In this document: piece after piece, positions 1-48,607 of the stretch | Position numbering within the stretch: position 1 is the stretch's first letter | Layout: every line of letters begins with the position of its first letter | Assembly (NCBI GenBank): GCA_018818835.1 | Contig: JAHIRD010000031.1 | Span: forward strand, 1-64,000 | Direction: 5' to 3' | From: Pseudomonadota bacterium | GTDB taxonomy: Bacteria > Desulfobacterota > Desulfobacteria > Desulfobacterales > Desulfolunaceae | DNA length: 64,000 bases | Program-made: the position numbers and the translations under genes | The notes under the pieces: model-generated | Told to the model about the DNA's origin: nothing | The model's input: only the letters and a program-made list of their open reading frames with translations | Database searches by the model: none

Positions 1-97
1 CTCCGGCCACCACCGTTTTCCCCCTATGCCGCAAAGCAATGATCGTTGTTCCATGAAATTGATTCATATCTCACTCTATATCCTATTTAGTGTCCGT

Positions 98-173
98 CCA
101 CTCACGTCCACTCAAGTCCACCAAGTCCACTCAAGTCCACCAAGTCCACTCAAGTCCACCAAGTCCACTCAAG
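98..173. repeat. 19-bp tandem repeat downstream of xerC
   Basis: Three perfect copies of CCACTCAAGTCCACCAAGT occupy 108-126, 127-145 and 146-164. A degenerate partial unit precedes them and a 9-base partial unit follows, right up to the xerC stop codon region. Each unit is made of two related half-units (CCACTCAAGT and CCACCAAGT), so it is a nested repeat. No spacers and no palindromic units are visible, so this is a simple tandem repeat and not CRISPR. Confidence 0.9.
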
Positions 174-35997: not shown

Positions 35998-36195
35998 ATG
36001 CAGACCATGAAATCCGTAAACACGATCAATTGCCGCAAATGTACTTTTTTTTATGTTACCTGGGATCCCATGCATCCTTATGGGTGCCGGGCCATGGGCT
36101 TTAAAGGGAAAGAAATGCCGTCCCTGACTGTTTTAAAAAATTCAGGAAAACCCTGTCTCCTATTTCAGGAAAAACAAAAATCAACACGGCCCTGA
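35998..36195 (+). CDS. small Cys-rich protein, unknown function
   Basis: 65 residues (ATG at 36007 is an alternative). It holds four cysteines: C-x2-C in NCRKCTFFY, then C in YGCRAMGF and C in KPCLLF, a possible small metal site. FFYVTWDPMHPYGCRAMGFK looks like a conserved family I have seen in Deltaproteobacteria, sometimes annotated as uracil-DNA glycosylase-like without evidence. No ribosome site is apparent, so the start is uncertain. Convergent with pepA, seven bases apart. Confidence 0.6.
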   Translation: MQTMKSVNTINCRKCTFFYVTWDPMHPYGCRAMGFKGKEMPSLTVLKNSGKPCLLFQEKQKSTRP

Positions 36196-36202
36196 TCATG
36201 TC

Positions 36203-37699
36203 TCAAGACAGCGCGAGGGATGTTTTCCCGCTGATCAGTTCACAGAGCAGCCGGACACCAAAACCGGTTCCACCGGGCGGGCAAATATCCGAGCCTTTGG
36301 CCGAATAAGCCGGCCCTGCAATATCCAGATGGGCCCAGCGTGTTTCACGGACAAATTCAGACAAAAACAGGGCCGCTGTAATGGCCCCCCCCCATTTCCC
36401 GCTGGACATGTTTCTTATATCTGCAAAATCACTTTTCAAAAGATCCTTGTAGTCTTCAGGCATGGGCATGGGCCAGCATTCATCACCACTTTTTTCTCCG
36501 GAAATCTGCATGGCTCTGGCCAGGGCAAGGTCTTTGGTAAAAAGGCCCGCAATCTTGTCTCCCAGGGCCACCATACAGGCCCCGGTCAATGTTGCCAGAT
36601 CAATCATCAAATCCGGCTGAAAGGTGTCAGCGGCCCATGACAGGGCATCGGCAAGAATCAGACGTCCTTCGGCATCGGTGTTTCCGATTTCAATACTCTT
36701 TCCACTGTAACTTCGGACTATATCGCCGGGCCTCAACGCATCTCCGGATGGCATATTTTCCACCAGGGATGCGATGCCCACAATGCGCGTATCTTGAACA
36801 AGTCCGGACAGTGCATAAACAGCGGCTGCCACAGCGGCAGCACCTGCCATATCCATTTTCATGGTGACCATGCCTTCGGCTGTCTTGAGATCCAGACCTC
36901 CAGAATCGAATGTTACACCTTTTCCCACGAGAACAACTGTTTTTCCCTTGTCTTTAAGATTTTTGGGATTGTGGTCCATAACAACCAACGCAGGTTTATT
37001 GAGACTGCCTTTGGCCACCGACAGCATGGCTCCGAACTTCATGGCCAAAAGGTCTTCTTCAGGATAAATCCGGCAGGTAACGGTCGTTTCAGCAAAAAGA
37101 TTCTTCAATATACCGGCAAACACCATGGGGGTTTTGTCATTGGCGGGCATGGACACCCAGGTTCTTGCAAGAAGACATGCATCGCAAATCCGATTGACCC
37201 TCTCAACAAGATCACCATGGTCCTTTACAAGCTCTCTTTCTGTTGCCAGATAAATACGCTCGACCTTTTTCTTCTTTTTCTTTTCCAGGTAAGTTTCAAA
37301 CACATAGTTAGCAAGTCGCGCCCCCTCGATCATGGCGGTCAAAAGGATGGCAACGTCCATTTTGAGGATTCTGGCATCGGGAACCGCAAACGTCATATTT
37401 CCAATATTCCATTCCACAGCTTTTTTCACCATGGCCCCGGCTGCTCTTCGAAGGTTTTCCGGACGGACCTTGCCCAGTGTCCCCAACCCCCTGAAAACAA
37501 TTCTCCGCGAATTGGCGTCGGGCGGATCTGCAAAAACAAGTTCCTCACCGGCTTTTCCAGTGAATTCTTTAAATGAAAAGGCCTTCTTTACAAGGTCGGC
37601 CAACGCTTTGTTTTCATAGAGGGGTTTTGTGTCGCAGACCAGAATGACCAACATTTCTGCTTTGGACTTCAATGGATTTCGGGATGTCAGTGTGAGCAT
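36203..37699 (-). CDS. pepA: leucyl aminopeptidase (M17)
   Basis: 498 residues, the normal length. Manganese/zinc-binding catalytic domain (about 180-490): GKGVTFDSGGLDLK, MKMDMAGAAAVAAAV, NTDAEGRLILADAL, with the active-site Lys and Arg. Removes N-terminal residues from peptides in the cytoplasm; in E. coli PepA also binds DNA at Xer sites, so a link with the xerC gene in the window is conceivable but not shown. The N-terminal DNA-binding-like domain (1-170) is present. Confidence 0.95.
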   Translation of the reverse strand: MLTLTSRNPLKSKAEMLVILVCDTKPLYENKALADLVKKAFSFKEFTGKAGEELVFADPPDANSRRIVFRGLGTLGKVRPENLRRAAGAMVKKAVEWNIGNMTFAVPDARILKMDVAILLTAMIEGARLANYVFETYLEKKKKKKVERIYLATERELVKDHGDLVERVNRICDACLLARTWVSMPANDKTPMVFAGILKNLFAETTVTCRIYPEEDLLAMKFGAMLSVAKGSLNKPALVVMDHNPKNLKDKGKTVVLVGKGVTFDSGGLDLKTAEGMVTMKMDMAGAAAVAAAVYALSGLVQDTRIVGIASLVENMPSGDALRPGDIVRSYSGKSIEIGNTDAEGRLILADALSWAADTFQPDLMIDLATLTGACMVALGDKIAGLFTKDLALARAMQISGEKSGDECWPMPMPEDYKDLLKSDFADIRNMSSGKWGGAITAALFLSEFVRETRWAHLDIAGPAYSAKGSDICPPGGTGFGVRLLCELISGKTSLALS

Positions 37700-38030
37700 G
37701 GTTATTATTCCTCAACGGGTGGTTTTTGTGTGCAGATTTCATTTTACGAATATTCTGTCAATTTTAACAGCCTTTACCTTCCATGGCAACACGGAATCGA
37801 AACCACTTTATTGTGAACGCAGCTCGCTTGACCTCCCAATCATATGGCCCATGAAACCCATGGAGTCCCATTTCATTTAATCTCAATGACAATTGATCTT
37901 GATTTTTTTATGCAAATCAGTAAACTTGGGCCATCGCAACACACTCATTTTGTCTGTATATTAATATAAACCCAGCAGGTTGGATCACGTGTACTGGGAT
38001 TGAGCATTCACATGAAGTCAGGAGGATGGC
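37700..38030. other. intergenic region between pepA and the papain-like gene
   Basis: 331 bases with the divergent promoters of pepA and the next gene. Contains a weak nonamer array (37844-37871). AGGAGG precedes the downstream start. No coding frame supported. Confidence 0.6.
37844..37871. repeat. degenerate 9-bp repeat, weak copy
   Basis: ATGGCCCAT and GAAACCCAT follow each other at nine bases, then GGAGTCCCAT with one extra base. The pattern (purines, then CCAT or CYAT at the end) matches the clearer arrays at 39641 and 43478. Confidence 0.45.
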
Positions 38031-39581
38031 ATGCGTAAATGGGGTAATTTTTTTTCAACTCTTTTGTTCTCTATGGTATTCTTAGCCCTTATCGGATGCA
38101 GTTCCAACTCAGGAACTCCATCAAACATCCCTGATCTTGCCCTTGTCACAGACCATGATCAGTCCGATCAGGAACAGGCCATTGCGGCTCAACTGGAAGA
38201 GGATGAAACCACTCTTTCAGATTTTTTCCTGACCCATGCCAGTTCATGGGACCCCGACACAACGGACACAACGGTCAGCCTTCTCCCTGACGGGAATATT
38301 CTTCACACCATCACCCTCAATGACGATCGAACACGCCAGGTGATCACCCTGGGCCGAAAGAATTCCATCCATGCCATGGCTGAGGGCCTTCGGGTTTTTC
38401 CCACCTGGGACAACCAGCTGAATATTTACAAACGGCTTTACAATACCATCACATCGCCGGATATCCGGGGAACCTTGGGACTTGTGGACCCCAGCCTCGT
38501 GGAATCAAATCCCGGGGACTATTCAGTGGAACAGATTGATACCTGGAACAGAGGCTTCATTGAATATATGGACACAATTATCGATGCCATTGCAGCGGTT
38601 CCATTTACGCCCTCCCCCATTATCGACTGCAGCCAGGACACGGGAACCGATGCGGACAGCGACCGGTCAGGATGTGATCCGGCCTGCGGATTCCAGGCAG
38701 GGGGCATATTCTCAAACCACACATGGAACCATAAAGATGCCTTGAGTTGTGTCAAGGACCAGGGCCCCACACGGGGAACATGCTGTGCCTTTTCCGTTGT
38801 TTCAGCCACAGAATACTGGGTTAAACGCAACTTTGAAATCAAAGTCAACCTTTCCGAGCAGGCCCTGTACAACCAGATGTGCTTAAGATGGGTACGCAGT
38901 GATTTTGTAGATGGTTACTATATTTCCAATGCCCTGGATTATGCCATCAATGAAGGGTATCTGATTCCCTTCGAAGACCAATGGAATTACAACCCGTCCC
39001 TTAACCGGATAAATTTGGACGGAGGCGGATTTTCCAATTCCTGTGTTTCCTATGTTGAAACCTGTTCCGACACAGCCCATCAGAGCGAATACGGCTGCAA
39101 TTCATCGGGTGAAGAATGCGGCTATTACGTCCCGGAAAAAAACCCCAACCACTATGGTTATCGCCTGAAAAGCGGCCATGTGATCTGGGATTTCAACCAG
39201 CCTGAAACCTCGCTTGTCCGTGTCCTTATCTATCTTGCCCTGGGAGATCCGGTCCTGATTCAAGTCCCAGTTCTGGCCCAGTTTGACGCGGCACGCTTTG
39301 ACGGTTTTGTCCAATATGTTGCCGGAGACGTGGACGGCCCCCCCGGCTCAGAGATAAAGTCCTCCAACCGGGGGAACCACATCATGCATGTGGTCAGCTA
39401 CATTGACAATGAGGACCTTGCGACGATCCTTCCCGATGCGCCGGCTGGATCGGGCGGAGGCTACCTGATCGTTAAAAATTCCTGGAGCAACTGCTGGGGC
39501 GACGGTGGCTATGTGTACCTGCCCTATGACTTTGTCAAGGAATACGGCCAGTATGGCAGTGTCTTGACAGCCATATATTAG
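38031..39581 (+). CDS. papain-like (C1) cysteine protease lipoprotein
   Basis: 516 residues. Signal peptide with lipobox LIGC at residue 20-23, so a secreted, membrane-anchored lipoprotein. The papain domain (about 235-510) has the nucleophile region DQGPTRGTCCAFS (Cys near 251, where papain has GSCWAFS, so Trp is replaced by Cys and one residue is inserted), active-site His in GNHIMHVVSYID and Asn in VKNSWSNCWGDGGYVYLP. The N-terminal 200 residues do not match a known propeptide. A nonamer array follows its end. Confidence 0.85.
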   Translation: MRKWGNFFSTLLFSMVFLALIGCSSNSGTPSNIPDLALVTDHDQSDQEQAIAAQLEEDETTLSDFFLTHASSWDPDTTDTTVSLLPDGNILHTITLNDDRTRQVITLGRKNSIHAMAEGLRVFPTWDNQLNIYKRLYNTITSPDIRGTLGLVDPSLVESNPGDYSVEQIDTWNRGFIEYMDTIIDAIAAVPFTPSPIIDCSQDTGTDADSDRSGCDPACGFQAGGIFSNHTWNHKDALSCVKDQGPTRGTCCAFSVVSATEYWVKRNFEIKVNLSEQALYNQMCLRWVRSDFVDGYYISNALDYAINEGYLIPFEDQWNYNPSLNRINLDGGGFSNSCVSYVETCSDTAHQSEYGCNSSGEECGYYVPEKNPNHYGYRLKSGHVIWDFNQPETSLVRVLIYLALGDPVLIQVPVLAQFDAARFDGFVQYVAGDVDGPPGSEIKSSNRGNHIMHVVSYIDNEDLATILPDAPAGSGGGYLIVKNSWSNCWGDGGYVYLPYDFVKEYGQYGSVLTAIY

Positions 39582-39640
39582 TCCGGGTGATGTCCGTGCG
39601 TACTCTCCTGCGACATCCGAACCCCAATCCATCTTGTTAT

Positions 39641-39676
39641 AGGACCTATACGACTTATGAGACGTATAGGTCCCAT
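39641..39676. repeat. degenerate 9-bp repeat array with hairpin
   Basis: Four nine-base units, AGGACCTAT, ACGACTTAT, GAGACGTAT and AGGTCCCAT. The stretch also holds a perfect 11-bp inverted repeat (39642-39652 with 39663-39673, ten-base loop). It lies 60 bases after the papain-like gene and could act as its transcription end, although no T-run follows. Confidence 0.7.
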
Positions 39677-39840
39677 GAAGATCCTCCGTTTAAAAATAAT
39701 TATTTTCTATTGCGCTCATTGTTATACATGAGGTAAATAATGTTAACATTGTTCACCTTAGCCATCACACGTGAGCCCCGATGCCTTAATCATGGATGGC
39801 ACCCCGATTATATTACACCTTACCGGAAAGGAGAATTGCC

Positions 39841-41265
39841 ATGCAACCAATGCGCTTTTTCGTTGTTTTTACCTTTGCCCTCCTCTTATTATGCATAACT
39901 GCCTGCGAGGAATACGACTGGGTGGACCCTCAAGTCCATGAATACAGCTTTTCAAGTTTGAATGCCTTGACGGATATCACCTATGCTCCGGACGGCAAAG
40001 GCTATCTGGGCGTGAGCAATGAAGGGAAAAAGCTGCTTCATGTTGAAGGGGCACCCTATGAAATGGGCTATCAACATGGGTATTTATGCGCCGAAGAGGT
40101 TTCCCGGATGGCATCCTATGAATTCTGGTGCGGCCTTATTATACACATGGCAAAACTGGATATGAGCCCTGAGCAGTTACTTGCCCAGGTGGGCGGTGAA
40201 AAAGGTGTGAATTTTCTTGTTGATCTACTGTATGTGGCTGTTGATAAATCCATTAAAAATGGTGAAATTCCCGATGAATTCTTGGATGAAGTTCAAGGCA
40301 TCGTGGATGGTGCCAATGATGCCGGTTATCCTGTGGCCTTTAAAAGCGTTATGATGAACAACATGGCCTTTGATGCCATTTTGGGCATCGGCTACCCCAT
40401 CATTGCGCCCTTCCTTCCTTTTGCCAGTGAATCGATGCTCGTTCCCGTACCCCATGCCTGCAATGCCTTTGTAGCCACAGGCGATGCAACGGCAGACGGA
40501 CGCACCCTCATGGGCAGGGATTTCATGTTTCCCAATGGGACCTATTATAAATATGGCCTTCTCATTGAGTGTGTCCCGGATACGGGCAACCGTTTTGTCA
40601 GCGTCATGGCCCCTTCGTTTGTGGGCACCGCCGCAGGTATGAACGAGAAAGGCATCGGCATCGGCATTGACATGGTCCCGGCCTTTGACTGCAAGATCGG
40701 AAAAATCGGCATGGGGGGGTTGCTTCTTAACCGATATGTGCTCCAGTATGCCGATGAACTCAGCCAGGGGATATCCATCCTAACCTCAAAAGAGATCGGG
40801 GTATCCTGGCTTTTTCCCATTGCCGATGGACAAGGGGCTGAACAGGGTAGTGCCACGGTGGAGGTTTCAGCCTCCATGAACCGGGTCCGTTATGATGATT
40901 ACAAACAGCCCTACTGGTCATCATGGATGGGCACACCGTCCCAGGGTGAGACAAAACCGGATCTCATTGTCACCACCAATCACTACCTGACCCCAGCCAT
41001 GTATTACACGGTCACGGATGCCATCCCGGATTCAACCTGGCGCTACGACATTCTATTGGAGCTCTGCCTCCTGTCCTATGGCCATATGGACCCCGACATG
41101 GGCCGGGCGATCATTGATTTTCTTCATCCGCCCAATTATGGTTACTATGGAGAGGACCCGGACCAGCCCGTGGAGTCATCGGTGTCCCTGTTTGACCTAA
41201 CCAACCTTTCCCTGTCCAGCCTTTACGGCCGATACTCGGATCCATGGGTAACATACCAATTCTAA
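39841..41265 (+). CDS. C45/acyl-transferase-like (NTN hydrolase) lipoprotein
   Basis: 474 residues starting at ATG 39841 (AAGGAG upstream). Lipobox ITAC with Cys at 22, so anchored and exported. The fold resembles peptidase C45 or acyl-CoA:6-aminopenicillanate acyltransferase: GAPYEMGYQHGYLCA near 70-84, then the putative autocatalytic nucleophile Cys207 in HACNAFVATGDATADGRTLM, followed by NEKGIGIGID. NTN hydrolases cleave themselves to expose the Cys. Substrate unknown, amide bond likely. Flanked by secreted hydrolases. Confidence 0.78.
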   Translation: MQPMRFFVVFTFALLLLCITACEEYDWVDPQVHEYSFSSLNALTDITYAPDGKGYLGVSNEGKKLLHVEGAPYEMGYQHGYLCAEEVSRMASYEFWCGLIIHMAKLDMSPEQLLAQVGGEKGVNFLVDLLYVAVDKSIKNGEIPDEFLDEVQGIVDGANDAGYPVAFKSVMMNNMAFDAILGIGYPIIAPFLPFASESMLVPVPHACNAFVATGDATADGRTLMGRDFMFPNGTYYKYGLLIECVPDTGNRFVSVMAPSFVGTAAGMNEKGIGIGIDMVPAFDCKIGKIGMGGLLLNRYVLQYADELSQGISILTSKEIGVSWLFPIADGQGAEQGSATVEVSASMNRVRYDDYKQPYWSSWMGTPSQGETKPDLIVTTNHYLTPAMYYTVTDAIPDSTWRYDILLELCLLSYGHMDPDMGRAIIDFLHPPNYGYYGEDPDQPVESSVSLFDLTNLSLSSLYGRYSDPWVTYQF

Positions 41266-41637
41266 GACAATAACAAAGGGGTGCGCCAGGAGCCTGGCGC
41301 ATTCATAATCAACTGAATTTTCAGTTTATTATCCATTCGTCTCCCAGCCAAAAAACGATGATCTTTATTTGACCGATTATTTTTTTCACTTTCGTTAAAC
41401 AAAGCCAATCTAACGTTTGACATTGTTTATATCCTTATTGTACGTTCAATTAACAATAACAATGTTATCGGTTGTGGCCCACGGTCTTATACCAAAACAA
41501 AAATTTCATACACCACACCAAAGGTTAAAGAGGACATTTCCAGGGACAGGTGCTATTCCGTCTGCCTATCCTCCTCCATGGAAAATACGTTCGCTTTTCC
41601 GAATTTGACAAGCAATTAAATTTAAGGAGATTTTTCC
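41266..41637. other. intergenic region with hairpin before the CocE-like gene
   Basis: 372 bases with no supported gene. A hairpin TGCGCCAG/CTGGCGCA (41282-41301) lies just after the C45-like stop; with no clear T-run it is a poor terminator. The rest is AT-rich and probably carries the promoter of the next gene. Confidence 0.5.
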
Positions 41638-43413
41638 ATGAAGCGCCAAAATTCTCTGTTCATGACCCTGTTCTTAATGCTGTTTATTGTCCCATCAGGG
41701 TTTACCATGGGAGCCCAGCCCGAAGAACCCGGCTATAATTACGCTGAGGAACTCTATGAAACAACCTGGCGGGATGATGTCATCATCGAATCCCATGATG
41801 GCGTGAAAATCTTTTCAAATATATTTGTGCCCAAACCCATAGAACCCAACGAGCGATTTCCGGTTATCATCATGCCCAACAGTTGGATCATGGAAGAACA
41901 TGAATATGTCATGCAAGGGGCCAAATTATGCAAGAAAGGTTACATTGTCCTGGGATACAGTGCCAGGGGATGGGGTCTGTCAGAAGGCCTTGTCAATGTG
42001 GGAGGCCCCGATGACATGGCCGATATCAAAGCCATCATCGACTGGCTCATTGATTACTATCCCGTGGAAGGTGTGGCCACAGACAGCTCTGGCAGGGTCA
42101 TTGACGATGCCAACGCCAATATCGGCATGTGCGGTATTTCACTGGGCGGAGGCCTTTCCCTTCTGGGAGCGGCCCATGATACCCGGATCAAGGCTGTGAT
42201 GTGCATGGTCCCTTGGGGAGATCTTGGTGGAGCCCTATACTTGAATCAAACCACCAAGGCCGTCTGGCACAAAATGATCCTCGTGGAAGTCGGGGGAATG
42301 GTGGGCAATCTCGACCCAGAAATCATTGAACTCACGGATGCCCTTTTCACCCACGACCATGACACCTATTACGATTACGTAATCAACTGGGCACTGGAGC
42401 GTTCACCCATAGATTATATCGATGAATACAATGAACTGAACGGAGAAAAACGGGATATCGCCATATGCCTGAGCAACAACCTCCAGGATGAGATGTTCCC
42501 CCCCAATCAGATCCTTCGTTTTTTCTACTCCCTTAAAACAGACAAAAAACGGCTTGATCTGAACCGCGGTATACACGCCGGCGCTGAAGCCATGGGAACC
42601 ATGGGTCTTGAAAATGAAATCTGGAACAAGGTCCATGCCTGGTTTGATGAACATATGAAGCATGTGGACACCGGCATCATGGACCTGAAAAAGATGAGCA
42701 TTGATAATAAGCGCACAGACGATCGGTACTTTGTGGATCACATCTATATCAAGGACATCAACATCGACTATCTGGATGGGCTATATGACCCCAAAGTCAA
42801 TGTCAACACCATCACCCCGGAAAAATACTACCTGGGTTACAGGCCCTGGTACAGACTTTACGGAAAGCTTGATTCATCCAGCCAGACCAGCAGCAAAACA
42901 GACACCATCCGAACAGGAAGTCTGTCAGGCATATCTTCGGGTATCCCCATGGTGAGCGGAATGCTTGAGGCAGACACGAATATGCATGTGACGACCTGGT
43001 TCCCACGGACGAATAAAGGGAAATCGATTATTTACGAGACGGAGGTGTTCACAGAGGATCGCACCATCATCGGCACGCCCCATGTCAAACTGAACATCAC
43101 CCCCACCACCGATTCGTTCCAGCTTGTGGCCCATCTTTACACCCTGGACGAAAACAATGTGGGGACCCTTTTCACCCATGCCCCCCTGACCATTCTCGGT
43201 AACGGAAAATTTATGCCCAATGCCTCAGCCGGAGAAAAAATCAGCATTGAATTCAATTTCGTCACCACCTGCCTCACCGTAAAAGCAGGTCAACGCATCG
43301 CCCTTGCCATTGATACCGAAGACCCGAACTACGGCAAAGCACCGGACACGGATTTTGAACTGACCTTCAGCTACGACAAAAATTCATGTCTTAGCATTCC
43401 CTTTGTGGATTGA
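41638..43413 (+). CDS. CocE/NonD (S15-like) hydrolase, secreted
   Basis: 591 residues. Signal peptide at 1-25. An alpha/beta-hydrolase domain with nucleophile Ser168 in GISLGGG (serine box GxSxGG), preceded by oxyanion segment GYSARGWGLSEG, and a distal active-site Asp (QDEMFPPNQ) and His (GIHAG). The C-terminal 190 residues form the jelly-roll X-Pro dipeptidyl-peptidase C-terminal domain (GTPHVKLNITPTTDSFQLVA, SIEFNFVTTCLTVKAGQRIA). CocE-type enzymes cleave esters or dipeptides. Exported, in a group with the papain- and C45-like genes. Confidence 0.85.
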   Translation: MKRQNSLFMTLFLMLFIVPSGFTMGAQPEEPGYNYAEELYETTWRDDVIIESHDGVKIFSNIFVPKPIEPNERFPVIIMPNSWIMEEHEYVMQGAKLCKKGYIVLGYSARGWGLSEGLVNVGGPDDMADIKAIIDWLIDYYPVEGVATDSSGRVIDDANANIGMCGISLGGGLSLLGAAHDTRIKAVMCMVPWGDLGGALYLNQTTKAVWHKMILVEVGGMVGNLDPEIIELTDALFTHDHDTYYDYVINWALERSPIDYIDEYNELNGEKRDIAICLSNNLQDEMFPPNQILRFFYSLKTDKKRLDLNRGIHAGAEAMGTMGLENEIWNKVHAWFDEHMKHVDTGIMDLKKMSIDNKRTDDRYFVDHIYIKDINIDYLDGLYDPKVNVNTITPEKYYLGYRPWYRLYGKLDSSSQTSSKTDTIRTGSLSGISSGIPMVSGMLEADTNMHVTTWFPRTNKGKSIIYETEVFTEDRTIIGTPHVKLNITPTTDSFQLVAHLYTLDENNVGTLFTHAPLTILGNGKFMPNASAGEKISIEFNFVTTCLTVKAGQRIALAIDTEDPNYGKAPDTDFELTFSYDKNSCLSIPFVD

Positions 43414-43477
43414 TATTCTTTCAACGGGGGGGGGGCCTGAAACAATACCCAAACACATTCCGAAAATAAAATGGCAT

Positions 43478-43549
43478 AAGTCCCATGGGTCCTATAGGTC
43501 TCATGGGATCCATGGGAGTCATAGGACGTATGAGACCTATGAGAATTAT
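43478..43549. repeat. degenerate 9-bp tandem repeat array
   Basis: Eight consecutive nine-base units, each ending in AT and starting with a purine: AAGTCCCAT, GGGTCCTAT, AGGTCTCAT, GGGATCCAT, GGGAGTCAT, AGGACGTAT, GAGACCTAT, GAGAATTAT. The period is nine without indels, and the changes fall at internal positions, so it is not a simple sequence run. It lies about 65 bases after the CocE-like gene. The same unit shape appears at 39641. Confidence 0.8.
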
Positions 43550-43662
43550 TATATGCTATTAATTAAATTATAACCTGATCCTGCTCAATCGATTGGTCAA
43601 AAACGCTCGTACATCGTATGGGCACGGGGTGCCCTGGCGAGCGAGAGGTTAATAAAAGGCTC

Positions 43663-44232
43663 TTACCCAAGTCCGATCTCACCAGCCACCTCACGCATGC
43701 CCATGATCACGTCCTGAACCAGATCGTTGATATCCACCCCCAGCATAAGGGCCCCCTTTTCAATCACGCTCCGATTTGCCCCTGCTGCAAATCCTTTCTG
43801 GTTCCATTTCTTTCGAACGGACTTGGGAGTCAGGTCCATGACACTTTTTGAGGGGCGAACCAAGGCGCAGGCATTGACCAGTCCAGTCAACTCATCAATG
43901 GCATAAAGGGTTTTCTCAAGCACAGTCAGGGGCTCCACATGGGAGCAGATTCCCCATCCATGGGAGACCACCGCACGGATGTAATCCGAAGGCCAGTTCC
44001 TTTCACGGAGAAGCTCTTCGGTTTTAGAGCAGTGATCCCCAGGAAATTTCTCGTAATCCAGGTCATGGATCAGACCAATGATGCCCCACATGGTCTCATC
44101 CTCCCCCTGTTTACGGGCCAGATACTTCATGGTTGCCTCAACGGCAAGGGCGTGGTTGATAAGGGACTCACTTGTATTGAATTCTTTGAGCAAAGAAAAT
44201 GCATCGTCGCGTGTCGGGACATAGTGTGCCAT
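43663..44232 (-). CDS. HD domain hydrolase
   Basis: 189 residues. Metal-binding HD motif: H27 in INHALAVEAT, then H56-D57 in GLIHDLDYEKF, and a possible distal His/Asp. Members of this short, single-domain HD family (HDIG or PF01966 type) are phosphohydrolases with unknown substrate. ATG start with AGGAG upstream. It lies opposite to tRNA-Arg upstream; no operon partner. Confidence 0.8.
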   Translation of the reverse strand: MAHYVPTRDDAFSLLKEFNTSESLINHALAVEATMKYLARKQGEDETMWGIIGLIHDLDYEKFPGDHCSKTEELLRERNWPSDYIRAVVSHGWGICSHVEPLTVLEKTLYAIDELTGLVNACALVRPSKSVMDLTPKSVRKKWNQKGFAAGANRSVIEKGALMLGVDINDLVQDVIMGMREVAGEIGLG

Positions 44233-44396
44233 ATTTTTTTCTCCTGTTTTAAGGAAACGAACTTTCTTAAAAATAAATGTTCAACAATTCTACCGTGCTT
44301 GTATTTTTTGTCAATGATCCGATTGACTTGGCCTGGTTCCTTGTCCCTGAGCCTCTGAGACAAAACAGCATGAATTGGGTTGAATTAAAAAAAGAC

Positions 44397-44426
44397 TTGA
44401 TATAAAGTGACTTTAACGTTTAGAAA
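44397..44426 (+). promoter_or_regulatory. candidate promoter of tRNA-Arg
   Basis: TTGATA (44397-44402), 18 bases, TAGAAA (44421-44426). Four of six -10 positions match. The tRNA starts 42 bases downstream. Confidence 0.35.
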
Positions 44427-44468
44427 TACAACAATTCATCTCACATTGGTTGATGATGCATGCATGAT

Positions 44469-44544
44469 GCGCCCGTGGCCCAGTGGATAAGGCGTCGGCC
44501 TCCGGAGCCGAAGATCGCTGGTTCGAATCCAGCCGGGCGCGCCA
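44469..44544 (+). tRNA. tRNA-Arg (CCG)
   Basis: 76 bases with encoded CCA. Acceptor GCGCCCG/CGGGCGC, anticodon stem TCGGC/GCCGA, loop CTCCGGA with anticodon CCG at 44502-44504, T arm CTGGTTCGAATCCAG. No duplicate 3' end was noticed nearby, so no insertion. Confidence 0.96.
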
Positions 44545-44664
44545 TGAATTTATTATCAATAATGTTACTATAAACCAGCAGTTTTCCGGTAGGCTGCTAA
44601 GGCTGTCAATTAACGGTATTATAAAATGGCAACATATTTCAAGTCACACATGGTGAGCCGCAGC

Positions 44665-45101
44665 ATGAATACGTTGCTTAAGGCATTTATGGGCCTGCTT
44701 GTTGCGCGCACATCTGTTCAGCTGACATGACAGCCCTTTCCGAAGACCAGCTGGATAAGCTCATTGCAGAGCAAGGAATTTGCGACCTGAATCTTCCTGA
44801 CACCTGCAACACGGATCCGGATGTTGAGAAAACCCTCTCCATGGTCAAGACGAGTCCCAAGGGTCCGGGGAATGTCAGTGCCGTAGACCCGGCCCTATCT
44901 ATCAACACCAGTCATGTTTTTGCAGCTAATCAGAATATCATAATCACAGGAGACTACTCAGACAATAAATTCCAAGAGACTCCACCTCCTGAGCTTCATA
45001 AACCACTAATGCTCCTACCGTCTCATGTTATTAGGGCTGATAGTAGCCTGGAGTCGAACTACCAATCCACCACTATCTCGATTCCGTCTGTTCAAGGATA
45101 A
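44665..45101 (+). pseudogene. frameshifted small exported protein
   Basis: ATG at 44665 gives MNTLLKAFMGLLVA, a good signal-peptide core, but reads into TGA at residue 22. One missing base around 44704-44709 (a GCGCGC run) would join it to the next frame: AHICSADMTALSEDQLDKLI and on to a stop at 45101, about 145 residues. ALSEDQLDKLIAEQGI after a signal peptide is typical of a family of small exported proteins (M..L.D..L..V.GQ.GI). The frame from ATG 44727 alone has no signal. A pseudogene or a sequencing error. Confidence 0.6.
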
Positions 45102-45269
45102 TATATATATGGCCATTAAACCTTCTTATCGAAAGATATTTACGAGAACCAATGCCCCATGAATCTTTTAAAGTCTTTTTGGCTAACAGATCGAATGGAT
45201 GAGAATAAGCGGATTTTTATTAAAGATGATCCTTTTTAAAGATAAAATGAAAAATCTGTTTATAAGTTC

Positions 45270-45298
45270 TTGACACAGCGTTCGGTTACCAGTATTTA
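45270..45298 (+). promoter_or_regulatory. candidate promoter of the IHF/HU gene
   Basis: TTGACA (45270-45275), 17 bases, TATTTA (45293-45298). Perfect -35 and spacing, half of the -10. The start codon is 52 bases downstream. Confidence 0.45.
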
Positions 45299-45349
45299 TC
45301 CTGTTAATTAATCCATTTAAACAATCACTGAAAAGCACGAAAGATAATT

Positions 45350-45634
45350 ATGACACTTACAAAAGCTGACATTGTCGATACCATTACCGAGCGTCTGGGA
45401 TATTCCAAAGTAAAGTCCTCAGAGACCGTTGAAACCGTCCTTGAAATCATCAAAGATTCCCTTGAAGAAGGCGATGATGTGCTTATCTCCGGATTCGGGA
45501 AATTGTGCGTCAAGGACAAGGCCGCTCGAAAAGGGCGGAATCCTGCCACAGGCGCGGACTTGATGCTCGATAAACGGCGGGTTGTCACCTTCAAGAGTTC
45601 CACCATTTTGAGAAACAAGGTCAACGAGAAATAA
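45350..45634 (+). CDS. ihfA: HU/IHF family DNA-binding protein, IHF alpha-like
   Basis: 94 residues. Bacterial histone-like fold starting MTLTKADIVDTITERLGYSK, with ISGFGKL and the beta-arm GRNPATGADLMLDKRRVVTF. The RRVVTF and the N-terminus are closer to IHF-alpha than HU, though in this lineage subunits are hard to separate by eye. It bends DNA in recombination, RpoN promoter activation and replication, so it may help the pilA promoter. A terminator-like hairpin follows. Confidence 0.88.
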   Translation: MTLTKADIVDTITERLGYSKVKSSETVETVLEIIKDSLEEGDDVLISGFGKLCVKDKAARKGRNPATGADLMLDKRRVVTFKSSTILRNKVNEK

Positions 45635-45665
45635 CAGCCTTCAGTCAATCTCAATCCATTTCTCA

Positions 45666-45685
45666 GGGGCCTTTTTTCAGGCCCC
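45666..45685 (+). terminator. hairpin after the IHF/HU gene
   Basis: GGGGCC (45666-45671) pairs with GGCCCC (45680-45685), and the flanking TCTCA/TGAGA may extend the stem. The loop contains the T-run, and no T-run follows, so its strength as a terminator is uncertain. Confidence 0.45.
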
Positions 45686-45985
45686 GTGTGAGAATAAATT
45701 CTCCAATCCACCCGATAAAGACAGATGATTCACATATTTGGCTGATTTATCTGATTAAATAACGACAAATCAGCATTCTGGATCCTGCGTCCATTATTTT
45801 CCCGGTCCAGGGTCACACAATCGTGAAAAATAGGATTGGGAGATGTCGCCCCGTATCTCTTCCCTGGGTTCGCCCTTTCGATTTTCAATCTCAAGTCTTG
45901 AAATGGTTAAAACACTCCCTGCAAATTCCCTGTATTTATCCCTTCATCCGGGGGATCTTGCGGGGGTTGCCTACCTATCAAAAAA
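45686..45985. other. intergenic region between the IHF/HU hairpin and the tRNA-Lys terminator
   Basis: About 300 bases between the IHF/HU hairpin and the converging tRNA-Lys terminator. Short frames exist but lack ribosome sites and recognisable products. Nothing else seen. Confidence 0.5.
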
Positions 45986-46016
45986 AAGGCCCCCAAGCCG
46001 TAAATGCTTGAGAGCC
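45986..46016 (-). terminator. terminator of tRNA-Lys
   Basis: Twelve-base-pair stem (45986-45997 with 46005-46016, two G-T pairs) and a seven-base loop. On the minus strand it runs into TTTTTT. It lies 11 bases beyond the tRNA. Confidence 0.85.
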
Positions 46017-46027
46017 TTATATATTCA

Positions 46028-46103
46028 TGGTGGGCTGCCGGGGTTTCGAACCCAGGACCTACTGATTAAGAGTCAGTTGCTCTACCAACTGAGCTAGCAG
46101 CCC
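46028..46103 (-). tRNA. tRNA-Lys (CTT)
   Basis: 76 bases with encoded CCA. Acceptor GGGCTGC/GCAGCCC, D arm GCTCAGTTGGTAGAGC, anticodon stem ACTGA/TCAGT with CTCTTAA loop and anticodon CTT at 46068-46070, T arm GGTTCGAAACCC-like. Confidence 0.96.
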
Positions 46104-46462
46104 AAAACACAGACTTCATTGTGTTTTTTAGAAACAAACTTCTAACAGCTTGGCCCCGGCTTGTCAATTTATTTTTACCCAAACCTCCCTTTGATTGCCT
46201 GATTTAATTATTCTATTCGCTGTGTTTGACAGAGCCCTTTGATCTATGATAAATGTATAGTGTTTACAACACAAATGACCCACATGAATCTTTGCTGATG
46301 ATTCTATTAAAAAAACCATTTTGATGATTCCCAAAAAAAAAGAAACTCCGAGCCACAAGAGGTTCAGTCGAGACATAATTCACGCGACGTGTGCACTATG
46401 GGCACGGCAACCGTGACAGACCATCCAGTATCAACAATTTATGAAAAAGCGGGAGGACATCC
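46104..46462. other. intergenic region upstream of the substrate-binding-like gene
   Basis: 359 bases. Divergent promoters for tRNA-Lys and the next gene should lie here; I did not find clear boxes. The short minus-strand frame 46164-46376 has no ribosome site or recognisable product. GGGAGG precedes the next gene. Confidence 0.5.
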
Positions 46463-47401
46463 ATGGCTGACAAACCTGTCATTAAAATTGGTCATTTAAA
46501 AATTACCGACCATCTGATCCTGGGTGTCACGGACCTGAAACTCAAAAAAGGTATGGAAACCTTCAAACACTGTTCCCTTCAGCCGGTTCTCAAGAACGGT
46601 TGGAACGAGGTGGCGGATGATCTTTCCACAGGAGCCATCCAGGGAGCCTTTATCCTTGCTCCCACGGCCATGGATATTTTTAAATCCGGCGTCGACATCA
46701 AGCTCCTCCTGTTCACCCATAAATCGGGCAGTATTCTTGTCAAAAATAAAAATGCAAACATCCAGAAAATAGAAGATTTCGCAGGAAAAGTCGTTCTCAT
46801 CCCCTATCAGCTGTCGGTTCACAACATGCTTTTCCATAAGCTGCTTTCAGAGAAAGGATTGAACCCGGGAATCAGCTCTGATCCCAAAGCCGATGTAATA
46901 CTCGAAGTGGTGGCGCCTTTTCAGATGCCCGATGCCATTCGGTTTGATGAAGAGGGAGAAATTGCAGGTTTCATCGTGGCTGAGCCCTTTGGAACCCAAG
47001 TGATCGCCAGTGGCCATGGCGAACCCTTTTACATGTCCTATGAGATATGGAACAAACATCCCTGCTGTGTGTTTGTGATGAGAAGCGAAATTATTGAGAA
47101 AAACCCCGAGGCTGTCCAGGAAATCACCACCAGCCTGGTACGATCCGGCTTTGCCGTGGCTGACCAGCCTGATTCCGCAGCCATTATCGGAGGGCGTTTT
47201 CTTGGCCAGGACGCCGGCATCATCAAGCAGGTCCTGACCGAGCCCAAAGAGCGGATTGTGACCGATGAGCTATTACCCATCATTAATGATTTGGCTATTA
47301 TTCAGGATTATATGTTTGATAAAATGAAGATACTGACAGACAAAATCGACCTGGAAAAATTTGTGGACACCCGTTTTGCAAAGGCGGCGGGTGCCAAATA
47401 G
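46463..47401 (+). CDS. substrate-binding-like protein without signal peptide (NMT1/NrtA family)
   Basis: 312 residues. The fold matches ABC substrate-binding proteins of the nitrate/sulfonate/taurine family (SsuA/TauA/NrtA): IKIGHLKITDHLILGV, STGAIQGAFILAPTAMDIFK, LIPYQLSVHNMLFHKLL, GFIVAEPFGTQVI. The N-terminus is MADKPVIKIG with no signal peptide or lipobox. It may therefore be a cytoplasmic sensor, as in NrtC-like or CmpA-derived domains. No ATPase or permease neighbour. Convergent with the MerR-like gene, nine bases apart. Confidence 0.75.
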   Translation: MADKPVIKIGHLKITDHLILGVTDLKLKKGMETFKHCSLQPVLKNGWNEVADDLSTGAIQGAFILAPTAMDIFKSGVDIKLLLFTHKSGSILVKNKNANIQKIEDFAGKVVLIPYQLSVHNMLFHKLLSEKGLNPGISSDPKADVILEVVAPFQMPDAIRFDEEGEIAGFIVAEPFGTQVIASGHGEPFYMSYEIWNKHPCCVFVMRSEIIEKNPEAVQEITTSLVRSGFAVADQPDSAAIIGGRFLGQDAGIIKQVLTEPKERIVTDELLPIINDLAIIQDYMFDKMKILTDKIDLEKFVDTRFAKAAGAK

Positions 47402-47410
47402 ATCGGGTGG

Positions 47411-48607
47411 TCATGATCCCTGGACCGAATCGATGTATTTATAAATACCCTGGATGGTTTTGCTGTCCCATTTGCCTTTACCCGACAGGGTTCTTACACC
47501 TTCCTCGTTAAACTGCCGTGTGGTTTCTTCGATACTGAGTTTGTCCTGCTGTTTCATCCGGATGATACGTTTGAGAATCTTTGATTTATAAGACTCATCC
47601 ACCTTGGACCTTGGCTGGGATTCCCTCTGCACCTGATCTTTTGGCCCATCATCCGTGTCGATCAGTTTGGACAGATCATCCACATCTTTAAGGCCGGCCC
47701 CATGGCCTCCTTTTCCTGAAGCATCGCCCTCTTCTTCAATAAGCAGAGACAGATCGTCAATATCCTTTTTATCCTGAATATCACCCGGCTCAAGAAGCAA
47801 CGATAAATCGTCAAAATCAATGCCATCTTCTTCCAAAACCTCATCTTCAATTAGCAATGAAAGGTCGTCCACATCGTTTGCACGTGGTGAAACCAAGGTA
47901 TCTACCCCAGGGGCCGCCTCTAATTCACCCGTGTCCAAAGTCTCTTTTCCCACGTCTCCGAGAAAATCGTCCATCAGCTCTGGCTCCTGGGTATCAATCA
48001 GCTCAGGAAGATCGTCCGGATGGTCAGGGACATAGGGCATGTCCATGGTAAAATCCTCTAGTTCAGATGGAGACGGGGCGGGCATGCGTTTCACTTTATC
48101 CATGAGTGCGCTGACCGAATCTTTTTCCGCAAGATCCTGAATCAAAGAGACCATATCACGCAAGGCATTGGCCTTGATCTGTTCTGACTCGGCCTGGCTT
48201 TCCATGGCGTAAGCCTTTCTCTCCTCGGCCGTGGCGCGCCGTTCCTGGGCATCTGCAATACGCTGTTGCTGGCCAAACATTCCAGCCAAGGATTCTTTTA
48301 AAGCCTCAATGATCACCCGGGTCTGCTCCACACCTTCAGGATGTGGGTCTCCGGCTCTATCCGATACGGACCTGACTGTTTTTGCCTCAAGGGCACGTTC
48401 TATTTCCTGGGTGTCCATTCCGGCATGGGTGCATTTGGAAATAAACCGGAAGACCTCTACAATGGTTTCCGGGTAAAGACGGCCCTGGGCATCCACCGAA
48501 GTCGGAAGCCATTTCCTATAACGATTACGCCATACATTGAGGGTTGTTTCACCGATGTTTAATTTATCTGCAACCTCGTAAAGACTTAAGGAAAGATGAT
48601 CAGGCAT
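47411..48607 (-). CDS. MerR-like DNA-binding protein with DDLSLLIE repeats
   Basis: 398 residues from ATG 48607 (AGGAG upstream; an earlier start at 48652 is unlikely). Residues 8-75 form a winged helix of MerR kind (LYEVADKLNIGETTLNVWRN). 95-175 are a coiled coil. 180-320 are acidic and disordered, with four copies of a short motif: VDDLSLLIE (246-254), FDDLSLLLE (265-273), IDDLSLLIE (283-291), VDDLSKLID (309-317), and a partial DDLPELID (198-205). 340-398 is a helical domain with RTLSGKGKWDSKTIQGIYKY, resembling a recombinase-linker segment. Unknown regulator. Confidence 0.65.
   Translation of the reverse strand: MPDHLSLSLYEVADKLNIGETTLNVWRNRYRKWLPTSVDAQGRLYPETIVEVFRFISKCTHAGMDTQEIERALEAKTVRSVSDRAGDPHPEGVEQTRVIIEALKESLAGMFGQQQRIADAQERRATAEERKAYAMESQAESEQIKANALRDMVSLIQDLAEKDSVSALMDKVKRMPAPSPSELEDFTMDMPYVPDHPDDLPELIDTQEPELMDDFLGDVGKETLDTGELEAAPGVDTLVSPRANDVDDLSLLIEDEVLEEDGIDFDDLSLLLEPGDIQDKKDIDDLSLLIEEEGDASGKGGHGAGLKDVDDLSKLIDTDDGPKDQVQRESQPRSKVDESYKSKILKRIIRMKQQDKLSIEETTRQFNEEGVRTLSGKGKWDSKTIQGIYKYIDSVQGS

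What the first reader, a model, noticed from the sequence alone, without database searches (positions are those of the whole stretch)
43478..43549. Eight-unit array of a degenerate 9-bp repeat
Units RRGNNNYAT-like keep exact nine-base phase for 72 bases while the inner bases vary, which neither random sequence nor slippage of a clean microsatellite would easily give. It contains palindromes (CCCATGGG, CCTATAGG, CCATGG). Two more sites at 39641 and 37844 show the same unit in the same region.
Basis: seen in the sequence. Interest (0 to 1): 0.6.

Follow-up and report, generated by a model that had tools for sequence, protein, structure and literature searches.

The report
Hairpin repeats built from 9-base units
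The odd 9-base pattern is one copy of a repeat scattered through this bacterium's genome, often just after genes; its units appear to form the two arms of a hairpin, and the same building block turns up in very distant bacteria for reasons that are not yet clear.

Summary
The array is real: eight in-phase units at 43475-43546, against at most two in 50 simulated windows. The 39641 site is also real; 37844 is within chance. The unit is better written YYATRRGWC: A, T, G, W, C nearly fixed, four positions varying almost only by transition. At least 95 places carry an array in this 6.75 Mb genome; a search of seven family relatives found none. T-units (GTC) precede A-units (GAC) in 47 of 67 arrays, and right-arm composition leans towards the complement of the left (weakly here, strongly in a planctomycete). 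I read it as the stem of an interspersed extragenic palindrome, with a conserved left module in up to 34 of 67, often downstream of genes like REP/BIME elements but with much longer stems and no transposase link found. The unit recurs in high copy, patchily, in Planctomycetota, Acidobacteria, Verrucomicrobiota, Bacteroidota and others, sometimes as near-perfect hairpins. Most likely a 3'-end RNA hairpin spread as a passive repeat; function is inferred. Against: no clear pairwise covariation, uncorrelated arm lengths, no general U-tract, and the window's own array folds no better than its shuffled units. Eight paper searches listed no description.

The parts
43475..43546 (+). Array of eight 9-bp units YATRRGWCY; W reads TTTAAAAA (three T-units, then five A-units): the two arms of a hairpin
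   Evidence: RNA fold of 43455-43570 has z -5.29 against 200 dinucleotide shuffles, but the array alone folds no better than its own units in random order (z 0.0)
43434..43474 (+). Conserved left module GGCCTGAAACAATACCCAAACACATTCCGAAAATAAAATGG; 22 of 67 arrays share it clearly, 34 of 67 at the looser cut-off
43547..43569 (+). A/T-rich right flank; differs from the commonest right end of the family (TATGAAGATTTT)
43570..43636 (+). Separate repeat module matching two other places of the genome (C229, C85); in C229 it again lies beside a decayed array
39638..39682 (.). Second, decayed array of the same unit (five units; A-units before a T-unit)
41638..43413 (+). Upstream neighbour: X-Pro dipeptidyl-peptidase (S15)-type hydrolase, 591 aa; gene end 61 bp before the array
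43663..44232 (-). Downstream neighbour on the other strand: HD-domain protein, 189 aa; the array lies between two convergent genes

Best explanation
The array is the stem of an interspersed extragenic palindrome. Its arms are tandem copies of a 9-bp unit, YYATRRGWC, that is its own reverse complement except for the central W. Putting GTC units in the left arm and GAC units in the right arm makes the arms complementary, and the four variable positions change by transition, so stem pairs stay purine-pyrimidine (Watson-Crick, G-U or A-C). SHOWN: array, copy number, polarity, preference for gene 3' sides, recurrence in other phyla; arm-level complementarity strongly in a planctomycete, weakly here. 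INFERRED: transcribed from an upstream or convergent gene, the element folds into a hairpin at the 3' end of the mRNA and limits read-through and 3' decay, as proposed for REP elements. Copies spread as a non-autonomous repeat (mechanism unknown), and arm length changes by gain or loss of whole units.
For: Genome-wide family: 29 exact CCYATRGGWCCYATRGG sites against 0 for the reversed control; 80 distinct places among the listed rows of the model search, 95 in union with the catalogue. Polarity: T-units then A-units in 47 of 67 arrays against a mean of 7.5 and maximum of 17 in 5000 shuffles of unit order, the reverse order in 3 of 67; in a later set 18 of 32 against 2 of 32 (those places were found with a model of that polarity). 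Arms: right-unit composition is nearer the complement of the left units than to the left units themselves in 4 of 4 columns in this genome (two of them by a hair: 0.48 against 0.44, 0.56 against 0.52), in 4 of 4 in the planctomycete G447 (for example 46/57 A left, 40/51 T right, same column 11/71) and in 3 of 4 in G436+G449. MFE is below the mean of unit-order shuffles in 40 of 49 arrays. Cleaner hairpins elsewhere: -71 to -123 kcal/mol for nine chosen loci of one Acidobacteria MAG. Place: convergent 21 of 48 intergenic arrays against 6 of 51 other gaps, Fisher p 0.0006; between tandem genes nearer the upstream stop in 15 of 22 (p 0.13), 9 of 12 in the later set, 22 of 26 in named genomes of other phyla (p 0.0005), of which 10 of 11 in the Acidobacteria MAG and 12 of 15 elsewhere.
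Against: No convincing pair-by-pair covariation: over seven dyad registers z for Watson-Crick pairs runs from -1.9 (central) to +2.0 (+4.5 bp). The window's own array folds no better than its units shuffled (z 0.0) and worse than column shuffles (z +0.9). T-arm and A-arm lengths are uncorrelated (Spearman 0.12, p 0.43). Outer flanks of a copy pair no better with each other than with flanks of other copies, here or in G447. Some genomes have long one-letter arrays, such as 26 T-units in a row in a Prevotellaceae MAG, which are poor hairpins. T-runs of 4 or more follow 23 of 34 flanked and 12 of 33 other copies here but only 6 of 56 clusters in other phyla. Canonical terminators are no rarer beside arrays, counts small. 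Convergent enrichment was not significant in the later set: 6 of 21 against 5 of 27. Polarity and arm bias within one genome may be founder effects, and the G447 arrays were picked by a model of the same polarity. No transcription data.
Confidence: 0.5

Rival explanations
1. Functionless minisatellite: a self-complementary 9-mer grows by slippage and hairpin-templated repair, is copied with neighbouring repeats, and survives after genes because it does least harm there.
For: Unit number varies from 3 to 10 in the catalogue, 19 in one array of the later set and up to 27 in a Prevotellaceae MAG; arm lengths uncorrelated; no convincing covariation; patchy: 0 of 7 family relatives, 7 of 297 genomes of the phylum including this one.
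Against: Slippage alone does not explain one polarity in 47 of 67 arrays, or the same unit and the same transition-prone positions in distant phyla, where the reversed control is 0 in 26 genomes (genomes chosen because they held the pattern).
Confidence: 0.25
2. Array of DNA-binding sites: a protein reads AT and GWC on the duplex every 9 bp, with indirect readout of the purine/pyrimidine steps; the polarity gives a symmetric assembly, for example of a nucleoid protein or topoisomerase.
For: A, T, G, W and C are nearly invariant while four positions tolerate transitions; one-letter arrays keep the same unit; preference for convergent gaps, where supercoils meet.
Against: A 9-bp period does not match the 10.5-bp DNA turn (general knowledge); no candidate protein was sought or found; arm composition behaves as complementary strands rather than as equal sites, clearly so in G447.
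Confidence: 0.12
3. A REP/BIME element mobilised by a REP-associated tyrosine transposase of this genome.
For: Extragenic, palindromic, downstream of genes, mosaic flanks; five Y1_Tnp domain rows exist in the genome.
Against: No array in the four stretches of 3-5.5 kb fetched around the Y1_Tnp rows; stems are much longer than described for REPs; no constant GTAG or CGTC end seen by eye.
Confidence: 0.07
4. Coding repeat: GGW CCY ATR reads Gly-Pro-Met/Ile, a collagen-like triplet, so arrays are pieces of collagen-like genes.
For: In one viral contig (L186) arrays of related units lie in open frames of 815 and 939 codons; permuted control patterns are about as common in viral contigs.
Against: In this genome 48 of the 60 arrays not at a locus edge are outside called ORFs, and the window array lies 61 bp past a gene end.
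Confidence: 0.03

Closest known systems
REP / BIME extragenic palindromes (PMC3733652: abstract and twelve passages; PMC2817692: abstract)
   Same: Interspersed, extragenic, palindromic, many copies per genome, mosaic neighbours, often downstream of genes and between unidirectional or convergent genes; patchy across phyla.
   Different: REPs are 20-40 bp with stems of mostly 6-9 bp (GTAG type) and a GTAG or CGTC tag, and RAYT genes are flanked by REPs. Here arms of about 20-50 bp are built from a repeating 9-bp unit, no tag was seen by eye, and no array lay in the stretches fetched around the Y1 transposase genes.
Intrinsic (bidirectional) transcription terminators
   Same: Hairpin just after stop codons and between convergent genes; in relative G311 a hairpin plus T-run, seen by eye, stands where this genome has the array (one site).
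   Different: Longer, imperfect stem; U-tracts not general (6 of 56 clusters in other phyla); the sequence itself is repeated from copy to copy.
Minisatellites / STRR-type degenerate short tandem repeats (recalled)
   Same: Head-to-tail units of 7-9 bp with internal degeneracy, outside genes.
   Different: Polarised into two complementary arms in many copies, and the same unit in unrelated phyla.
CRISPR arrays (recalled)
   Same: Tandem palindrome-containing units.
   Different: No spacers, 9-bp period.

Membership tests
REP (repetitive extragenic palindrome) | Palindrome of 20-40 bp with a short stem | tested here: not met
   Arrays of 27-90 bp in the catalogue of this genome, a few of them within the REP size; arms of about 40-50 bp in several folded loci of the Acidobacteria MAG
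REP (repetitive extragenic palindrome) | Unpaired GTAG or CGTC tag at one end | tested here: inconclusive
   No constant tetranucleotide of that kind seen by eye at the ends of the 67 arrays displayed; not scored by a program
REP (repetitive extragenic palindrome) | Flanks a RAYT gene in the same genome | tested here: inconclusive
   Five Y1_Tnp rows; no array in the four fetched loci, but two loci lie at contig starts and the genes were not classified as RAYT
REP (repetitive extragenic palindrome) | Extragenic, mostly downstream of genes | tested here: met
   the convergent part was not significant in the later set
Intrinsic terminator | Stable hairpin followed by a U-tract | tested here: inconclusive
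   Right T-run of 4 or more in 23 of 34 flanked and 12 of 33 unflanked copies here, but 6 of 56 clusters in other phyla
Intrinsic terminator | Ends transcripts | not testable with these tools
   No RNA data
MITE-like mobile element | Terminal inverted repeats and target-site duplication | not tested
   Conserved left module only; some G447 copies show GTAG..GTCTC-like mirrored ends by eye; no duplication was sought
Known Rfam RNA family | Match above a gathering score | tested here: not met
   Only tRNAs in window 36000-48000 and one tRNA in eight loci with arrays
Collagen-like coding repeat | In-frame part of a gene | tested here: not met
   48 of 67 arrays intergenic, 12 inside called ORFs of 92-336 codons, 7 at locus edges

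The most novel reading that the evidence does not exclude
YYATRRGWC is a stem-building unit shared across bacterial phyla: unrelated interspersed elements with different end sequences (GGCCTGAAAYAATACCC in this genome, GTAG..GTCTC-like in a planctomycete) carry the same 9-bp stem. That would imply either horizontal spread of a stem module or an undiscovered cellular activity that recognises, copies or extends exactly this self-complementary unit.
Probability: 0.22. Interest if true: 0.85.

Novelty: new variant of a known kind. Interest (0 to 1): 0.6.

Why it matters
Extragenic palindromes are known in many bacteria, but a family whose stem is a tandem array of one degenerate self-complementary 9-mer, in high copy in a few members each of several phyla and not found in the nearest relatives held, fits no class I know or found. 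If the unit is recognised by something, that factor should exist in planctomycetes, acidobacteria, Prevotella-like bacteria and this organism alike, which makes it findable by comparing genomes with and without the repeat. If nothing recognises it, the case shows how a self-complementary minisatellite can make long hairpins after genes again and again.

Tried and rejected
Chance: rejected. Simple minisatellite without arm structure: not favoured here because of polarity, but it fits part of the Prevotellaceae arrays. Viral spread: the 12 viral-contig stretches are not specific, because four permuted palindromic patterns gave 10, 22, 0 and 23. Rfam families: none but tRNA. Collagen-like coding: disfavoured here. 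REP/RAYT: no array beside Y1_Tnp genes in the loci fetched. Canonical terminators beside arrays: inconclusive, 4 of 37 and 3 of 16 gene ends with arrays against 3 of 21 and 4 of 39 without. Pairwise covariation: z from -1.9 to +2.0 over seven registers. G-U against A-C by element orientation: 92 against 64 in the flanked class, 33 against 21 in the rest, not tested for significance. Copy-specific pairing of outer flanks: none here or in G447, borderline in the Acidobacteria MAG (p 0.064); a first version allowed too small an offset and gave p 0.022 there. Compensated class changes in Acidobacteria stems (158 double and paired against 65 single and 18 double but unpaired) look strong, but the stems had been chosen for pairing, and one of the 39 clusters in that list is from Bacillus coahuilensis, so they carry little weight. 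Gene calls are a home-made longest-ORF rule; the 12 arrays 'in ORFs' may be spurious ORFs.

Full report
Observation. All eight units match all six specified positions, while 50 first-order simulations of the window never exceeded two in a row. The array lies 61 bp after the end of an S15-type hydrolase gene and 116 bp before the end of an HD-domain gene on the other strand.

It is one copy of a genome-wide family. A 272-base query gave 61 rows, both strands, in the window's own genome (G000, 6.75 Mb, 334 contigs); a few of them belong to a neighbouring repeat. The exact 17-mer CCYATRGGWCCYATRGG occurs at 29 places, its reversed control at none. I catalogued 67 arrays in the stretches found. 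A sequence-only model of 25 of them gave 158 rows, both strands; the listed rows make 80 distinct places, 95 in union with the catalogue. Only 150 of 2221 first-look candidates were scored, so this is a lower bound. The array DNA matches none of the seven other genomes held of its taxonomic family, and the model found none in the four of them tested.

Anatomy. Over the 376 catalogued units the consensus is YATRRGWCY. Y1 is C or T in 365, A2 is A in 374, T3 is T in 370, R4 is A or G in 369, R5 in 342, G6 is G in 352, W is T or A in 350, C8 is C in 346, Y9 is C or T in 342. W is ordered: T-units first, then A-units, in 47 of 67; the reverse in 3; the other 17 one-letter or mixed. Shuffling unit order gives 7.5 on average and never more than 17 in 5000 trials. 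Because the unit is its own reverse complement except for W, this order makes the array an inverted repeat. In 34 of 67 arrays a conserved module (consensus GGCCTGAAAYAATACCCAAATAAA..GAGATAAAAATGA) precedes the array. The 34 were assigned by a local alignment score of 12 or more; 22 score 20 or more and 11 score 12-15, sharing only the last few bases. Several right-hand neighbours are themselves repeated modules.

Is it a stem? For: the window region folds at -40.9 kcal/mol, z -5.29. Of the 49 arrays with at least five units, 40 fold better than the mean of their own units in random order and 33 better than column-shuffled versions with W fixed. The transitions of the right arm lean towards the mirror of those of the left: right-arm units are nearer the complement of left-arm units than to the left-arm units themselves in 4 of 4 columns here (two only just), in 4 of 4 in G447, where the effect is very strong, and in 3 of 4 in G436+G449 pooled. 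In a later set of 32 arrays at 30 places the pattern has the same direction but is weak. Against: the window array itself is no better than its shuffled units (z 0.0, and +0.9 against column shuffles); there is no convincing array-by-array covariation, z from -1.9 to +2.0 over seven registers; arm lengths are not correlated; outer flanks do not pair copy-specifically here or in G447. I conclude that the arms are complementary at the level of the family consensus, with much decay in this genome. Founder effects could mimic this within one genome; its recurrence in a planctomycete argues against that, although those arrays were chosen by a model of the same polarity.

Where it sits. With simple gene calls, 48 of 67 arrays were intergenic, 12 fell inside called ORFs of 92-336 codons and 7 at locus edges. 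Of the 48, 21 lie between convergent genes, against 6 of 51 array-free gaps of at least 100 bp in the same loci (Fisher p 0.0006). Of 22 between tandem genes, 15 are nearer the upstream stop (p 0.13). In the later set convergent arrays were 6 of 21 against 5 of 27 (not significant), and 9 of 12 tandem ones were nearer the stop. In the named loci of other genomes, 56 of 140 array clusters were intergenic by the same rule; 22 of the 26 between tandem genes are nearer the stop, medians 10.5 and 52.5 bp (p 0.0005), 10 of 11 in one Acidobacteria MAG and 12 of 15 elsewhere. At the window site the nearest relative with the same hydrolase (G311, 64% identity) has, by eye, a hairpin with a T-run directly after the stop, where this genome has the array; no HD-gene match was found in that genome, so this is a single suggestive site.

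Beyond this genome. Their titles span Acidobacteria, Verrucomicrobiota, Lentisphaerae, Planctomycetota, Bacteroidota, Hydrogenedentota, Cloacimonadota, Chlamydiae, Methylomirabilota, Clostridia, Proteobacteria, Desulfomicrobium, a Desulfobacterales bacterium and one Bacillus; nearly all are MAGs, 33 of the 119 from one Acidobacteria MAG, and mis-binning is possible for single hits. Some of these arrays lie in long open frames and may be coding. In evenly drawn samples the repeat is rare and patchy. Phylum of the window: 7 of 297 genomes, 36 sites outside G000 (28 of them in one genome) against 4 control hits. Its order: 6 of 146, only 6 sites outside G000 against 4 control hits, so no clear excess. 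Phylum of G449: 11 of 288, 29 sites outside G449 against 3 control hits. The model made from this genome's arrays finds 4 to 167 rows in 10 of 14 genomes tried, the four zeros being the family relatives. In the Acidobacteria MAG the arms are separated by a loop and form long near-perfect stems, -71 to -123 kcal/mol in nine chosen loci. In a Prevotellaceae MAG many arrays are long and one-lettered, the longest of 27 units. In viral contigs the pattern is no commoner than permuted palindromic patterns, so those hits mean nothing for this unit.

Mechanism. My best account is an extragenic palindrome acting as a 3'-end RNA hairpin: transcribed from the upstream gene, or from both genes of a convergent pair, it folds and limits read-through and 3' decay. 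The purine/pyrimidine constraint with free transitions is what a stem tolerant of G-U and A-C pairs would leave. The lack of a general U-tract (6 of 56 clusters in other phyla) argues against a classical intrinsic terminator. None of the functional steps is shown. The main rival is a functionless self-complementary minisatellite that survives best after genes.

Known kinds. The nearest described class is REP/BIME. From PMC3733652 (abstract and twelve passages): REPs are 20-40 bp, GTAG- or CGTC-tagged, found in 8 phyla, mostly between unidirectional and convergent genes. [quoted passage not shown] The present elements share place and palindromy but not size or, as far as seen, tag or transposase linkage. 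PMC4060949 (passages) reports that tandem repeats of 6-11 bp are over-represented in a few prokaryotes, without this unit in the passages seen. Eight answered paper searches, two of them for literal array words, listed no paper that by its title or the start of its abstract describes this unit; two listings were cut (20 of 558, 20 of 22), and the library holds open-licence papers only.

Noticed in passing
window 43570-43636: A second interspersed repeat module (in C229 81% identical over 127 bases including the array's end; also in C85) lies right beside the array; in C229 it adjoins a decayed array, with a GC-rich palindrome at its far end.
   Followed up: partly
window 43426-43435: Run of ten G at the start of the conserved left module.
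   Followed up: no
window 96-173: Tandem repeat of 10/19 bp (GTCCACTCAA), about 8 copies, score 140.
   Followed up: no
L302 and other G447 loci; L161, L155: In the planctomycete G447 some arrays have mirrored outer ends resembling GTAGYGTCTC..GTTTGTCC / GGACAAAC..GAGACRCTAC; in L302 they pair over 14 bases. Possible terminal repeats of a different carrier element.
   Followed up: partly
L310, L312, L313 (G435, Prevotellaceae MAG): Very long one-letter arrays (up to 27 units) and a cluster of arrays on one 102-kb contig (C38), several filling the gaps between called genes.
   Followed up: partly
right flanks in L008, L012, L040, L043, L046: Right flanks (in element orientation) read TTAACGTCCAACG or close to it; GTTGGAC on the other strand fits the integron core-site consensus GTTRRRY (recalled), possibly by chance.
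   Followed up: no
right flanks in L016, L027, L035, L041: Another repeated module, GGAGAATTGTTTTTGGGG or close to it, begins directly at the array's right end in several copies; arrays often sit at junctions of different repeats.
   Followed up: no
window 44469-44541 (+) and 46031-46103 (-): Two tRNA genes near the array.
   Followed up: no
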